Shown here: positions 7,554-43,337 of the stretch, in pieces
Layout of the letters: every line of letters starts with the position of its first letter
How positions within the stretch are numbered: position 1 is the first letter of the stretch
Assembly: GCA_022561755.1 (NCBI GenBank)
Contig: JADFQN010000007.1
Location: 1 to 43,345 of the forward strand
Direction: 5' to 3'
Source: Bacteroidota bacterium
GTDB taxonomy: Bacteria > Bacteroidota > Rhodothermia > Rhodothermales > Rubricoccaceae
Length of the DNA stretch: 43,345 nucleotides
Translations under genes and position numbers: made by a program
The notes under the pieces: model-generated
Databases searched by the model: none
Told to the model about the DNA's origin: nothing
What the model saw: only the letters and a program-made list of their open reading frames with translations

Positions 7554-7710
7554 GGTGCTATCCGGCGCGTTGACGCCGTGCAATGGAATTGGAACGGAAG
7601 GATACGACCTACCCTACCAAAAACGACGCGGACGGCAACACGCGTCGCCGCCCGCGATCCCATACGCGCGATTCAATAGACTCGTAGGGAATTGTGAGTC
7701 TGAAGTACCA
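7554..7710. other. Intergenic stretch upstream of panB
   Basis: These 157 bases between the panB start and the type C repeat contain no ORF that I can support and no clear hairpin. Any panB promoter would lie here, but I cannot point to convincing boxes. Confidence 0.4.
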
Positions 7711-39171: not shown

Positions 39172-40101
39172 ATGCCTGTAACAGCAACCTCGCCATCGCA
39201 GTTGACGTGGACCAAAGTCCTCGGGCCCGATGAATTGCCTGAGGGTCGTGTATTACCCGTCACCTGCGCGCTCACAACAGTGTGCATGACGCACTTTGAA
39301 GGCGAGTATGGTGCTCTGGATAATCACTGCCCCTATCAAGGCGGTCCGCTCGGGGAGGGCTCCATCGAGAAGGGTTTGCTACGCTGCCCGTGGCATGGAT
39401 GGGACTACCATCCTCTCACCGGCACGCCTGCTATCAGTCCGTCGCGTTTCCCAGACCTTGCGAGCGTTGAGGACTTTCGGCGCGTGGCCGATGAGGTCCG
39501 CGAGGAAAGCGGCGGCATCCCCATCGGGTTCAAGTTATCTGCCCAGCACATCGAGGCCGACATCGACTTTGCTCTCGATGTCACAGTCGACTACATCATC
39601 CTCGACGGGCGAGGCGGGGCAACCGGGGCGGCGCCGGAGATTTTCAAGAACAACATTTCGGTTCCGACACTTGCTGCACTTGCGCGGGCTCGCCGGCATC
39701 TTAACAAGCGCGGTGCAGACGGGGTCACACTGATCATCACGGGCGGCCTGCGAACCGAATCCGATTTCGTAAAGGCGCTCGCCCTCGGCGCCGACGGAGT
39801 TGCCGTAGCGAACTCGGCTCTTCAAGCCATCGGCTGTCTCGGCATGCGTGCCTGCCACACGAATAACTGTCCGGTTGGCATTGCCACACAGAAGCCGAGT
39901 CTACGTGCGCGTCTGGAGATCGCAGCATCAGCGCGGCAACTGGCGAATTTCTTCGAAGCCACGGTCCACCTCATGCAGATTCTCGCACGCGCCTGCGGGC
40001 ACGATCAACTCAGCGGATTCAATACCAACGACCTGACGACGTGGAAACGGGACATCGCACATTTGACGGGGGTGAGATATGCAGGGGTGGAGCCGGATTG
40101 A
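39172..40101 (+). pseudogene. Rieske / glutamate-synthase (FMN) chimeric ORF, probably a deletion fusion
   Basis: Residues 1-85 form a Rieske [2Fe-2S] start of the type found before TPP-dependent enzymes: MPVTATSPSQLTWTKVLG, LDNHCPYQGGPLGEGS and LRCPWHGWDYHPLTGTP. From AISPSRFPDLASVEDFRRV onward it is the C-terminal half of an FMN-binding glutamate synthase-like protein: IPIGFKLSAQHIEADIDF, YIILDGRGGATGAAP, the [3Fe-4S] motif CLGMRACHTNNC and LTTWKRDIAHLTGVRYAG. The rest of the Rieske domain, any TPP domain and the first half of the glutamate synthase barrel are missing. The first Rieske CxH motif reads CPY, losing a His ligand. I read the ORF as a chimera from an in-frame deletion joining two genes, and its product as probably non-functional. 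An assembly join is also possible. Confidence 0.7.
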
Positions 40102-40161: not shown

Positions 40162-40291
40162 GAATAACATTGGTGGGTTCACGTTGAGGCATGACGGATC
40201 GCACCTTCACTTGCGGCAAGGGCCAACTAGGATTCTCGATCTAGGATGGCGGTCGCAGCCCGCAGCCGTCAAGTGCAGGGCGATGTTATGC
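40162..40291 (-). other. attC-like recombination site 2 (130 bp), candidate
   Basis: Read on the minus strand it starts GCATAAC and ends GTTATTC, the R'' and R' boxes. ATAACAT and ATGTTAT pair. The inner CACTTGA/TCAACGTG arms pair with one bulged base, and an apical GCCA-CTAG stem caps the structure. It is a long imperfect hairpin as in large attC sites. The single bulge lies on the opposite arm from the one expected for minus-strand polarity, so orientation is uncertain. It lies 62 bases after the stop of the 98-residue cassette protein. Confidence 0.5.
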
Positions 40292-40353: not shown

Positions 40354-40650
40354 TCACGCCTGCGAGTATTTCTTGATCGCCTCGAGATAAGTGCGCTCGC
40401 TCTCATCCTTGAACTTTCCCTTGCTGTCCTTAAGGGCATTGAGCTTCTCGTAGATGCTGTTATAGATGATGCGTTGTGCTTGATTTGAGAGATTCTGATC
40501 CTCGATAGGGTCCAAATCAACATCCTCACTTAGAAACAAGTCCAGCAACTTTAGCAATTGCTCCTTGTCGATCTCATCAATCGGTTTCCAGTCGTCCTTC
40601 TCGTCGACTCTAAAGAGGCCGCTACCCTTTTCAATGCTTAAGATCTTCAT
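40354..40650 (-). CDS. Small partner protein of the PHP-ATPase
   Basis: A 98-residue acidic protein without signal or membrane segment. MKILSIEKGSGLFRVD at the N-terminus looks like two beta strands. KPIDEIDKEQLLKLLDLFL, then NQAQRIIYNSIYEKLNAL and DESERTYLEAIKKYS, look like helices. I do not recognise a named family. The start ATG 40650 lies inside the last codons of the PHP-ATPase gene, overlapping by 20 bases, so it is translationally coupled and almost certainly acts with it. ATG 40668 and 40677 are alternatives. AT-rich like its partner. The TGA stop is followed 62 bases later by an attC-like site. Confidence 0.75.
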   Translation of the reverse strand: MKILSIEKGSGLFRVDEKDDWKPIDEIDKEQLLKLLDLFLSEDVDLDPIEDQNLSNQAQRIIYNSIYEKLNALKDSKGKFKDESERTYLEAIKKYSQA

Positions 40651-42655
40651 AGCCTCGCCTCCGTTCATTGTACGCATCCTCGCCAGCCTCCAAACAGCCC
40701 ATCGTAACTTCCCAGTTATCTAGGCTCTTCCCGTCTGGAGTGCGCAGTTGCTTGTTGGCAGGGAAGCCTGAATAAATGCGATAGCAGATTTCTTCATCCA
40801 CGAGCTCCTTTCTGGTGCATAGAAGGTAGTTTGGTTTGATAGATGCCCCGACTGTGTTGTTATGTGTTACCAGAACGACTGGCATATGTTCGGCAAGATC
40901 CTTGATAATTACGTTCACTTCAGATTTTAGAAAAAGGTTGTCAAACGACGACTCCGGCTCATCGATCAATAGCATTTCATACCTCTGGGCGTCCTCAATT
41001 TCCTGGAGGAGGTTGAATTCAGATCTCTCACCGCCAGACACTTCAAAGCCATCCTTATTGAGGATCTTGTAATCAATCTTGGCGAAGTACTTGCTAAGGT
41101 CAGCTTCTTCCAAACCGTCGATCTCCCGAAGTTCCTGCAAGTACCTATACGGGTGTTTGTACAACTTGAACGCCCCGCTGAACTTACTCTTGAGTCTGCT
41201 CAATTCTTTCAGCTCACTCGCTCCCTGGAAATCTCTGACGCTCGCGACGATCTCGAAGCCCTGAAGTCGTTTGCGCATTATCTCTCGTTGAACCCTTGCC
41301 GATTGTACAGCTCGTTCGAACCTAACCACTTTGTTGCGGTTCATGGCTATGCCATAAAGATCAACGTCTTCTATTGTTGTGGCGGCGGATTTTCTTCGTA
41401 ATTTTCCTTTTGTCTCCGTTACCAGGTCGTTGACCCACACCTTTTTCAATCGGAGCAGCTCTCGCTTGCTGTACTCTAGCATCAACTCCACAATCAAAGC
41501 CTTTAGGCCGTCCAGCGACACGTGCTTCTCTATCATCTCTCGAAATTCAACATTTTCAATTAGGTTCTGAGTTGATTCGATTAGATCGAATATGTTTTTC
41601 TGTTTGAGGATGGCAAATTTCTCCTCCCGAAACAAACTTGCTTTGGAGTATGCGTCGTGCTTCTCTATTTCATTTGCAAATTTCTTAAGTGAGCGCAAGT
41701 ATTCGGACACCGACCTTGAGTCGGTTTCAAGATCGACGTCCAGAACATCGTTAATCACGACTTGAAGCTCCTCAAGATACCCTCGAGAATGCAAACTGTG
41801 TTCTTCGCGAAGGAACCTGCTAAATCGCTTTTCGTCCTGCTTCTCATCGCGTTCCACTAGTGAAAACTGTTTGATGTACTTCACGTTCTCGAATTCTTCG
41901 CAAATGCGCTTCAGTGTATGCGACTTGCCTGACGATCTCTCTCCGATGATTACGTTCAGGCTGGTTGACAGCATCTGACCGTCATCAAAGATCTGAAATG
42001 TCTTACTGCCATCGCTCTCAGACAACGAAACTTTGCTCTTGTCTCGAAGGCAGCTCCTTATTGCGGAGAAACTCGCCTCATCACATGCGACATAGGTTTG
42101 TCGGACGGGAAACGTGAGCAAATTTTCGTCGATCCTACAGTCGCTGAAATAGACAGGGACTAGCCGCTCTTGGCCCTTAAGCCAGTAGACGAATTTCTTC
42201 ACGCTCGACACCTCGCCCGCCGTTACGAATTGCTGGAGCTTGAGTAAAGTGTGCTCCTTGAGCTGTGGCTTCTTGTCGTAGTGCGGAATCAGGATGTACT
42301 TGGCAAGGTCTCCATATATTTGTATCAATTGTTCAACCGTGATAGAGCTCTTCTTCGTTGGGCGCAGTTTGGTGATTTCCTGGCATTTCTCATCGAAGTC
42401 TTTGAGATCGGACCCGTCCGCGATCAAGAGCAACTGGCCGCCCTCGAGATCGATCTCGATCCCGGGGAGAACCAACTTCCTAATACCTGCCTTGATTATC
42501 TCAAATTGCTTAAGGGAAAATTGATTGTGATTCGTTATCGCGATACAATCGAGATATCTGACACGTACATAATCTTTCAGTCGCTTAAGACTAAAGGTGA
42601 AAGCGGCATCGCTAGGAGTGGATAGTGTATGAATATGAAAGTCTATTTTGATCAT
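40631..42655 (-). CDS. PHP-domain / ABC-SMC-type ATPase, candidate defence protein
   Basis: The N-terminal PHP phosphoesterase domain (residues 1-150) has HIH at residues 7-9, ITNHN with His 43, PGIEI with Glu 67 and IPHYD with His 125, all expected metal ligands; the usual TDHN reads TNHN. The ATPase begins with Walker A GERSSGKS at 238-245. A charged coiled-coil region (about 270-520) resembling SMC/Rad50/RecF-type ATPases follows. The signature SGGERS starts at 540, Walker B LLIDEPESSFDN near 562 and the H-loop VLVTHNN at 598. Known relatives combine PHP nuclease or phosphoesterase activity with an ABC ATPase, and TrlF is a similar protein. ATG 42655 is chosen (GTG 42667 would add four residues). 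Far more AT-rich than the chromosome around it; flanked by attC-like sites. Confidence 0.85.
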   Translation of the reverse strand: MIKIDFHIHTLSTPSDAAFTFSLKRLKDYVRVRYLDCIAITNHNQFSLKQFEIIKAGIRKLVLPGIEIDLEGGQLLLIADGSDLKDFDEKCQEITKLRPTKKSSITVEQLIQIYGDLAKYILIPHYDKKPQLKEHTLLKLQQFVTAGEVSSVKKFVYWLKGQERLVPVYFSDCRIDENLLTFPVRQTYVACDEASFSAIRSCLRDKSKVSLSESDGSKTFQIFDDGQMLSTSLNVIIGERSSGKSHTLKRICEEFENVKYIKQFSLVERDEKQDEKRFSRFLREEHSLHSRGYLEELQVVINDVLDVDLETDSRSVSEYLRSLKKFANEIEKHDAYSKASLFREEKFAILKQKNIFDLIESTQNLIENVEFREMIEKHVSLDGLKALIVELMLEYSKRELLRLKKVWVNDLVTETKGKLRRKSAATTIEDVDLYGIAMNRNKVVRFERAVQSARVQREIMRKRLQGFEIVASVRDFQGASELKELSRLKSKFSGAFKLYKHPYRYLQELREIDGLEEADLSKYFAKIDYKILNKDGFEVSGGERSEFNLLQEIEDAQRYEMLLIDEPESSFDNLFLKSEVNVIIKDLAEHMPVVLVTHNNTVGASIKPNYLLCTRKELVDEEICYRIYSGFPANKQLRTPDGKSLDNWEVTMGCLEAGEDAYNERRRGYEDLKH

Positions 42656-42844
42656 ATTTCCCGACACACTCGTTTATCGCATCGAGTAAGCAGCTTATCC
42701 GACATGTATCGAACACGGCCGGTCGGTGATCTGCTTGATGGAGGACCGGCTAATGCGGGAGCGGGCTGCATTCTAATGTCAGTTGGATTGGTTGCGCCAG
42801 GGCAGAGCTTGGAAGTCGATTTGAATGCTGTGAGGTTGTGAGCC

Positions 42845-42914
42845 GCATAACGGAGTCGCGGTTAAGCGTCACTTCCCAGATGGGAAGGTGTACGGCTTCA
42901 ACCGCTGGTTATGA
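42845..42914 (-). other. attC-like recombination site 3 (70 bp), strong candidate
   Basis: Read on the minus strand: TCATAAC (R''), a five-base spacer, GTTGAAGC (L''), a hairpin, GCTTAAC (L'), a nine-base spacer and GTTATGC (R'). The L boxes differ from those of the aadA1 attC site in one base. Positions 42859-42878 pair with 42881-42904 in a 20-base stem. That stem has four single unpaired bases (42887, 42891, 42894, 42899), all on one arm, the L'' side. One-sided extrahelical bases are a hallmark of folded attC sites. It lies 52 bases after the stop of the membrane-protein gene on the right. Confidence 0.78.
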
Positions 42915-42965: not shown

Positions 42966-43337
42966 CTAGCTGCCCTCGCTCGCTGGTGTAGCAGGCTTTC
43001 TCAGCCGTGCGCCGATAAACCCCCCGAGACACGCGGCTACAAGGCCGGAAGCGAGGAAGGGCAAGTCGTCCCTAAAGAAGGATCCGAATTGTCCAGAGGA
43101 AATCAGGCCGATCGTGACGAGTAGCAAACCGGGGGCAACTACCCACAACCCCCATCTCCAGGCACCACCCGGCCAGAGGGTGCCGATGAGTAGCCCCGCA
43201 GCACCGAAAATGGCTGTTGAAATGAGGATCGCTGTGGCGAAAGACGGCGACTCCAATGGCAGGTTGGCTGGCGCGAACGCCGCGAGGAGACCGAGGAGGA
43301 CGGCGATCGCGTAGGCGAAGCGTGGCTGCCGGTTCAT
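42966..43337 (-). CDS. Small four-helix membrane protein, cassette-borne, hypothetical
   Basis: A 123-residue hydrophobic protein with about four transmembrane helices: AYAIAVLLGLLAAFAPANL, TAILISTAIFGAAGLLIGTL, GLWVVAPGLLLVTIGLI and FLASGLVAACLGGFIGARLR. It ends in a short polar tail. I recognise no family. It reads in the same direction as the PHP-ATPase, and its stop is followed at 52 bases by the strong attC-like site, so it is probably the gene of a separate cassette in the same array. More cassettes may lie beyond the right edge. Confidence 0.7.
   Translation of the reverse strand: MNRQPRFAYAIAVLLGLLAAFAPANLPLESPSFATAILISTAIFGAAGLLIGTLWPGGAWRWGLWVVAPGLLLVTIGLISSGQFGSFFRDDLPFLASGLVAACLGGFIGARLRKPATPASEGS

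What the first reader, a model, noticed from the sequence alone, without database searches (positions are those of the whole stretch)
40354..42655. PHP phosphoesterase fused to an ABC/SMC-like ATPase with an overlapping small partner: possible anti-phage system
An intact PHP metal site and a complete ABC ATPase with a coiled-coil insert are joined in one 674-residue protein. It is translated together with a 98-residue partner that I cannot assign. Nuclease- or phosphoesterase-plus-SMC-like ATPase designs recur in phage defence systems (family knowledge), and the unit sits in apparently mobile, AT-rich DNA. I recognise neither the pair nor the partner as a named system.
Basis: partly seen in the sequence, partly recalled or inferred. 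Interest (0 to 1): 0.75.

Follow-up and report, generated by a model that had tools for sequence, protein, structure and literature searches.

The report
Phage-defence gene pair on integron cassette
Two overlapping genes, a fused metal-enzyme/ATP-powered DNA-sensor protein and an inseparable small partner, match a catalogued but untested phage-defence candidate, and here the pair appears to travel as a mobile integron gene cassette.

Summary
At 40631-42655 (-) there is a 674-aa protein A: an N-terminal PHP domain followed by a complete SMC/RecN/UvrA-like ABC ATPase head with a helical insert. At 40354-40650 (-) there is a 98-aa partner B that overlaps A by 20 nt. One correction: the last PHP ligand (DxH) is Arg174, which is Arg in 74 of 75 aligned sequences.

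The pair is not unnamed. It matches PADLOC's phage-defence candidate PDC-M49A (E 2e-281) and PDC-M49B (3e-32). B follows A in 77 of 80 species-level loci. The other three could not be judged fully; one shows the first 36 residues of B at a contig edge. Relatives sit inside or beside type I, II and III restriction operons and on 57 plasmid records.

What is added here: the pair lies in an integron-type gene cassette. A 70-nt attC precedes it, with 98-99% copies at three other places in the same genome. Relatives in unrelated bacteria are also attC-flanked.

Likely mechanism: a DNA-sensing ABC ATPase licenses an EndoQ-like PHP nuclease, with B as obligatory co-subunit or brake. Function is inferred; nothing was assayed.

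The parts
40631..42655 (-). gene A: PHP-ABC ATPase, 674 aa (PDC-M49A)
   Evidence: (E 2.4e-281, residues 1-673 of 674)
42050..42655 (-). PHP domain of A, residues 1-202; H7, H9, D16, H43, E67, H125, D172 kept, terminal His replaced by R174
   Evidence: VIA-align: EndoQ 7k30 Z 15.7; RNase AM, PolIII/PolC PHP Z ~12
41921..41944 (-). Walker A GERSSGKS, residues 238-245
   Evidence: sequence
41297..41845 (-). helical (short coiled-coil-like) insert in the ABC head, residues 271-453; no cysteine, so no zinc-hook motif
   Evidence: secondary structure; sequence
40718..41287 (-). C-terminal ABC lobe with signature SGGER, Walker B LLIDEPE and H-switch H598 (residues 457-646)
40354..40650 (-). gene B: 98-aa acidic partner (pI 4.7), PDC-M49B; beta-hairpin, short helix and 40-residue helix predicted
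   Evidence: (E 3.4e-32)
40631..40650 (-). 20-nt overlap of A end and B start (translational coupling inferred)
42845..42914 (-). attC site (70 nt) of the preceding cassette: R'' TCATAAC, extrahelical G, R' GTTATGC; cassette recombination point at the G/TT of 42851-42849
   Evidence: (z -2.76)
42656..42850 (-). 5' leader of the PDC-M49 cassette (no sigma-70 promoter match on this strand)
40162..40291 (-). presumptive attC at the 3' end of the cassette: R'' GCATAAC (40291-40285) is the exact complement of the R' GTTATGC that starts the cassette; its own R' is uncertain (GTTATTC at 40168, or a degenerate GTCATGC inside)
   Evidence: (z -1.47, weak)
42966..43337 (-). 123-aa ORF of the neighbouring upstream cassette (weak DUF3792-like match, below cut-off)

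Best explanation
A two-gene phage-defence (or anti-mobile-element) module of the PDC-M49 type, carried as an integron gene cassette. Proposed mechanism: protein A dimerises through its SMC/RecN/UvrA-like ABC heads on abnormal DNA (ends, lesions or replication structures of an invader). ATP binding or hydrolysis then brings the PHP domain, whose closest structural match is the DNA endonuclease EndoQ, onto a nucleic-acid phosphodiester and cuts it. B, made from an overlapping start in near-equal amount, is an obligatory co-subunit that docks on A and licenses or restrains it. SHOWN by sequence: pair anatomy, conservation, obligatory pairing, restriction-operon and plasmid contexts, attC flanking. 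INFERRED: DNA as trigger, nuclease activity, role of B, and protection against phage.
For: PADLOC PDC-M49A/B matches over full length. B follows A in 77 of 80 GTDB loci and 6 of 6 fetched plasmid loci; the three misses are an A cut at residue 609 with the contig ending 181 nt later (L043), a contig ending 100 nt after A (L061, whose genome still shows B residues 1-36) and a stretch masked by N (L103). B is never alone in the genomes searched. Embedding in immune operons: HsdS overlapping A by 1 nt and HsdR 2 nt after B in L068; type III Mod and Res right after B in L095; type II methyltransferase after B in L109; Res just before A in L057 and L098; HsdR near A in L036. Fold: EndoQ-DNA Z 15.7 (217 aligned, rmsd 3.5), other PHP enzymes Z 12-15, UvrA Z ~12; SMC, RecN and JetC heads by Foldseek. 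Patchy distribution, low G+C and plasmid carriage. Integron cassette.
Against: No activity measured. The PHP site lacks the canonical last His (Arg174), so catalysis could be altered or lost. B has no assignable fold relative (no Foldseek hit at E<=0.001 in PDB or viral models). The neighbours in the window itself are not recognised defence genes. The 3' attC is weak and the genome keeps only an integrase remnant, so the cassette may be stranded and little expressed; no clear promoter was found. Genes about 5 kb or more away in the relatives' loci also give PADLOC hits (60 families in 101 proteins), so neighbour enrichment was not measured strictly.
Confidence: 0.62

Rival explanations
1. Toxin-antitoxin or abortive-infection pair: A is a nuclease toxin that acts on host RNA or DNA, and B is the co-translated neutraliser that phage infection removes or inactivates.
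For: Small acidic partner encoded with the larger enzyme in a fixed overlap; B never occurs without A in the genomes searched; weak similarity of the ABC tail to AriA (1.3e-3) among the PADLOC matches.
Against: The small gene comes second, not first as in most antitoxin-toxin operons (recalled); B has no known antitoxin fold; embedding in restriction operons suits a direct-acting nuclease as well.
Confidence: 0.2
2. Accessory of restriction-modification: A-B processes restriction products or regulates the restriction enzyme, so it needs an RM partner.
For: In several loci the pair lies within or against type I, II or III RM operons.
Against: No RM gene is seen beside the pair in the window or annotated in the six plasmid stretches fetched; the RM type varies between loci, which argues against a fixed partner.
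Confidence: 0.12
3. DNA repair or replication protein (RecN/UvrA-like) without an immune role.
For: The ABC head resembles UvrA, RecN and SMC and the PHP domain resembles EndoQ and PolIII.
Against: In the class only 3 of 244 genomes carry it and none of the 8 same-genus or same-family genomes searched does; plasmid, cassette and RM-operon carriage; foreign G+C.
Confidence: 0.05

Closest known systems
PDC-M49 (PADLOC-DB 2.0.0 phage-defence candidate; PDCs come from the Payne et al. 2024 preprint, seen only as a citation in PMC13356809)
   Same: Both proteins, full length, order and pairing
   Different: Nothing separates it as a protein pair; the integron-cassette carriage is the addition made here. 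I could not read the source preprint, so whether it notes this is unknown.
TrlF family AAA-like ATPase (NCBIfam NF045780, 944 positions)
   Same: Weak profile match over PHP and N-terminal ATPase part (1.6e-19, 70 bits, residues 3-467)
   Different: Far below the 350-bit cut-off, shorter by ~270 residues
EndoQ (PDB 7k30) and other PHP enzymes (RNase AM, PolIII/PolC PHP domains)
   Same: PHP fold, most metal ligands; VIA-align Z 15.7 for EndoQ-DNA
   Different: No ABC head in the matched structures; the terminal DxH is DxR here
SMC/Rad50/RecN/UvrA ABC heads, including JetC (Wadjet)
   Same: Head motifs and fold
   Different: Short helical insert (~180 residues) without hinge or zinc hook; PHP domain fused in front
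Integron-borne defence cassettes (Darracq et al., Kieffer et al. 2025; seen only through passages of the review PMC12409362)
   Same: Defence gene(s) flanked by attC sites as a cassette
   Different: A long (about 2.6 kb) full-length two-gene cassette; the review says integron-borne defence systems tend to be streamlined

Membership tests
PDC-M49 | A matches the PDC-M49A profile over its whole length | tested here: met
   2.4e-281, 1-673 of 674
PDC-M49 | B matches the PDC-M49B profile and sits next to A | tested here: met
   3.4e-32; 20-nt overlap
PDC-M49 | relatives are embedded in immune loci | tested here: met
   for relatives; not so for the window's own neighbours
PDC-M49 | anti-phage activity | not testable with these tools
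   PMC12988326 (passages) calls most PDCs unvalidated; nothing found for M49
TrlF family (NF045780) | score over the curated cut-off of 350 bits | tested here: not met
   70.2 bits
Active PHP phosphoesterase | complete set of metal ligands including the terminal DxH (motif recalled) | tested here: not met
   H7, H9, H43, E67, H125, D172 invariant in 75; position 174 is Arg in 74, Lys in 1 (two plasmid relatives at 27% identity have His174 but Glu125)
ABC/SMC-type ATPase head | Walker A, Q-loop, signature, Walker B, H-switch | tested here: met
   core residues 75 of 75
Integron gene cassette | attC upstream, recombination point at G/TT | tested here: met
   copies 98-99% identical that part just after the GTT of R'
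Integron gene cassette | cassette start R' complementary to its own 3' R'' | tested here: met
   GTTATGC once (42851) and GCATAAC once (40291) on that strand in 43 kb
Integron gene cassette | complete, well-folded 3' attC | tested here: inconclusive
   z -1.47, 17 of 200 shuffles fold as well; R' ambiguous
Integron gene cassette | integron integrase in the genome | tested here: inconclusive
   none over cut-off in this 88%-complete genome; N-terminal remnant beside an attC array on contig C191; full IntI in 17 of 40 relatives including the same genus, 0 of 14 controls

The most novel reading that the evidence does not exclude
PDC-M49 is a distinct class of innate immunity: an ABC head that senses invader DNA structure drives a PHP enzyme whose DxR active site gives it an unusual substrate (modified DNA, or tRNA), with B as the licensing subunit. 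Integrons have captured this module independently in several bacterial lineages, so that integrons and restriction operons act as two alternative carriers of one and the same self-contained system.
Probability: 0.25. Interest if true: 0.68.

Novelty: new member of a known kind. Interest (0 to 1): 0.46.

Why it matters
If right, a widespread but untested defence candidate gains a concrete anatomy to test: an invariant partner, a defined catalytic set with a conserved Arg in place of the usual His, and an ATPase cycle. Its repeated carriage on integron cassettes puts a full-length two-gene nuclease module into a vehicle that bacteria shuffle and exchange, and widens the known cargo of chromosomal integrons outside Vibrio.

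Tried and rejected
Searches that led nowhere. 'PDC-M49' in 5.39 million held papers: 0. Papers on PHP plus ATPase plus defence and on TrlF gave nothing on this pair in the listings. The ABC-ATPase survey and the PDC preprint by identifier were not held. Protein A against 50,697 phage records: no match; B likewise. Viral contigs: 5 loci, 3 of them clear relatives. B fold searches in PDB and viral models: nothing significant. Pfam alone would have missed the identity (best E 0.0068).

Considered and dropped. (1) TrlF membership: below cut-off. (2) The 119 of 395 phylum genomes with a PDC-M49A match at E<=0.001 are mostly not family members: only G000 and G163 score over 900 bits, the rest are partial matches of under 80 bits to other proteins; the control search hit 10 of 14 named genomes in the same way. 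(3) L103's 1395-aa frame is a masked stretch read through, not a fusion. (4) Many attC-like scan hits inside genes are chance; only sites flanking the pair with both hairpin and R'/R'' logic are used. The pair test alone is modest: 5 of 83 loci (window included) against 1.4 expected from mismatched pairs.

Rows left out before counts. From alignment A3: L032, L043, L046, L053, L103, L114, L115 (broken, cut or unclear start), and the plasmid rows. From the overlap list: L070 (short B), L115, and the plasmid loci. Searches count families, not proteins, and only the top 25 families were printed. Only two neighbours on each side were scanned (280 proteins). B was searched in the genomes of 40 of the 80 loci.

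Full report
WHAT IS THERE. On the minus strand, A (ATG 42655, stop ending 40631, 674 aa) is followed by B (ATG 40650, stop ending 40354, 98 aa), overlapping by 20 nt. Both are about 46% G+C in a 61% G+C contig. The window is the whole contig C130 of a fragmented genome (198 contigs, 3.06 Mb, 88% complete), and it ends 690 bases upstream of A.

IDENTITY. PADLOC-DB gives PDC-M49A for A (2.4e-281, residues 1-673) and PDC-M49B for B (3.4e-32). Pfam gives only sub-threshold matches to A and B, NCBIfam gives a weak TrlF match (70 bits, cut-off 350), and PHROGs nothing of note. PDC means phage-defence candidate; two papers that I read in passages (PMC13356809, PMC12988326) cite for them a 'guilt-by-embedding' study, a preprint by Payne et al. 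(not held), and the second states that most are unvalidated. No held paper mentions PDC-M49.

DISTRIBUTION AND PAIRING. A scan of one genome per GTDB species found at least 188 stretches that encode a relative, of which the best 80 were kept (32-64% identity; Pseudomonadota, Bacteroidota, Bacillota, Planctomycetota, Omnitrophota, Spirochaetota, Patescibacteria and others). B follows A in 77 of 80, and in 6 of 6 plasmid loci. The three misses are not clean absences: L043 (A cut at residue 609, contig ends), L061 (contig ends 100 nt after A; one search finds B residues 1-36 at that edge) and L103 (masked with N). One counted locus, L115, has a broken A frame. The overlap is exactly 20 nt in 63 of 75 loci listed, 23 in 9, 26 in 1, 41 in 2. 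B is single-copy in 40 of 40 carrier genomes searched (half of the 80). In the window's class A and B are in the same 3 of 244 genomes, and the eight same-genus or same-family genomes lack both, which suggests a late, horizontal acquisition. Plasmids: 57 of 72,556 records hold A, 53 of them over most of its length. Phages: none of 50,697 records.

IMMUNE CONTEXTS. In L068 a type I specificity gene overlaps the start of A by one base and a type I restriction gene begins 2 nt after B; in L095 type III Mod and Res follow B; in L109 a type II methyltransferase follows B; in L057 and L098 a type III Res precedes A. In L036 a type I restriction gene lies just upstream. Of the ten neighbours scanned one by one, seven matched restriction or methylase models and three (in L036, L095 and L109) matched nothing at 1e-10. 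Among 280 nearest neighbours 155 and 189 PADLOC families matched at 1e-20 (two batches of 140), against 60 among 101 genes about 5 kb or more away; these are counts of families, not genes, and the far genes share the islands, so this is only indicative.

STRUCTURE AND CHEMISTRY. The AlphaFold model of A (pLDDT 87.9) has a PHP domain (1-202) and an ABC head (~215-662) split by helices 271-453. VIA-align puts EndoQ bound to DNA first (Z 15.7, 217 residues, rmsd 3.5), then other PHP enzymes (Z 12-15), and for the head UvrA and SMC proteins (Z ~12); Foldseek lists SMC, RecN, JetC and RNase AM. ABC residues are invariant. PHP ligands H7, H9, H43, E67, H125 and D172 are 75 of 75; the terminal DxH is DxR in 74 of 75. 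Two distant plasmid relatives show the opposite swap (His174 present, Glu at 125). So the site is probably functional but altered. B (pLDDT 83.8) is a beta-hairpin plus helices with no significant structural relative, acidic (median pI 4.8 of 76).

THE INTEGRON CASSETTE. 5' of A lies a 70-nt site at 42845-42914 with R'' TCATAAC, an L''/L' stem with an extrahelical G, and R' GTTATGC. A 91-nt stretch that holds it folds better than 200 of 200 shuffles (z -2.76), and a scan that scores it 15 found no site of 11 or more in 872 kb of simulated sequence. The same site recurs 98-99% identical at three further places (C191 twice, C99 once), and the four sequences part company just after the GTT of R', the recombination point. 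On C191 such sites bound a row of short genes (acetyltransferase, methyltransferase and others) next to an integrase remnant that points away from them. Full integron integrases are in 17 of 40 relatives, including the same genus, and in 0 of 14 control genomes. At the other end of the pair, 63 nt after B, R'' GCATAAC is the exact complement of the R' that opens the cassette; each heptamer occurs once on that strand in the 43-kb window. The 3' attC itself is weak (z -1.47) and its R' ambiguous.

Other lineages show the same. L074 (Chromatiales) has an attC before A and another right after B, with GTTATGC/GCATAAC as partners. L060 (Desulfobulbaceae) has an attC after B, a partner heptamer 40 nt before A, and a following cassette. 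L046 (Deltaproteobacteria) starts inside an attC and has a second, with a degenerate R', after B. L106 (Endonucleobacter) has an attC after B and a second one 0.8 kb on; no exact partner heptamer lies before its A. L106 and L071 (Desulfuromusa, another phylum) share 88.7% DNA identity only over a cassette-sized stretch that ends inside the attC. That makes 4 of the 80 loci; most of the others show no attC next to the pair with this scan (3 sites near the pair in 2 loci at score 11 or more; L060 and L046 were found by the other tests). In a tree of 81 proteins the four labelled rows (window, L060, L074, L106) need four changes, all forced by well-supported branches (shuffled labels give about the same, so this shows separate placements, not clustering). 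L056, L071 and L078 look like remnants by eye.

HOW IT MOST LIKELY WORKS. An ABC head of this kind dimerises on ATP around DNA (family knowledge); the fused EndoQ-like PHP domain would then cut. B, made by overlap at matched dose, is the co-subunit that permits or restrains this. These steps follow from family knowledge and the models, not from assay.

VERDICT. A good catch, correct in substance. The pair is a known, unproved candidate; the addition is that it sits in an integron-type cassette here and in several unrelated bacteria, with an obligatory partner and a characteristic DxR PHP site.

Noticed in passing
window 39172-40101 (+): Rieske plus glutamate-synthase ORF of 309 aa looks internally shortened: the same-genus relative G395 (L148:3053-5128) has a 691-aa ORF with nearly the whole Glu_synthase region. 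It abuts the end of the cassette array; a second, diverged fragment of it lies beside another attC on contig C99 (L127:10060-10725).
   Followed up: partly
L126 (contig C191) 4161-8055: Small attC array with acetyltransferase, methyltransferase, a 172-aa and a 159-aa ORF and a 135-aa ORF that by eye resembles a TIR domain (no Pfam match at 0.01), divergent from an integrase remnant.
   Followed up: partly
L126:18278-18301 and 7574-7597; L127:11820-11843: Half-attC pieces on the opposite strand followed by a common motif near GAGCGAGCGAAGCGAG; unexplained, perhaps a repeated cassette end.
   Followed up: no
L010:2-301 and 863-1105: The homologue in genome G163 lies next to two copies of the same 80-aa gene end, as if an element duplicated its target gene end on insertion.
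   Followed up: no
L106:7921-10413 and L071:7921-10411: Nearly the same cassette-sized stretch (88.7% DNA identity) in a gammaproteobacterial symbiont and a Desulfuromusa: a transfer across phyla.
   Followed up: yes
L030-L035: Most plasmid copies lie near recombinases or IS elements and, in two records, near other abortive-infection genes (AbiH in L030, abortive infection family protein in L032).
   Followed up: no
L107 and L109: Near-identical A proteins in contigs labelled Clostridia and Tenericutes, with the same arrangement of downstream ORFs; transfer or mislabelled bins.
   Followed up: no
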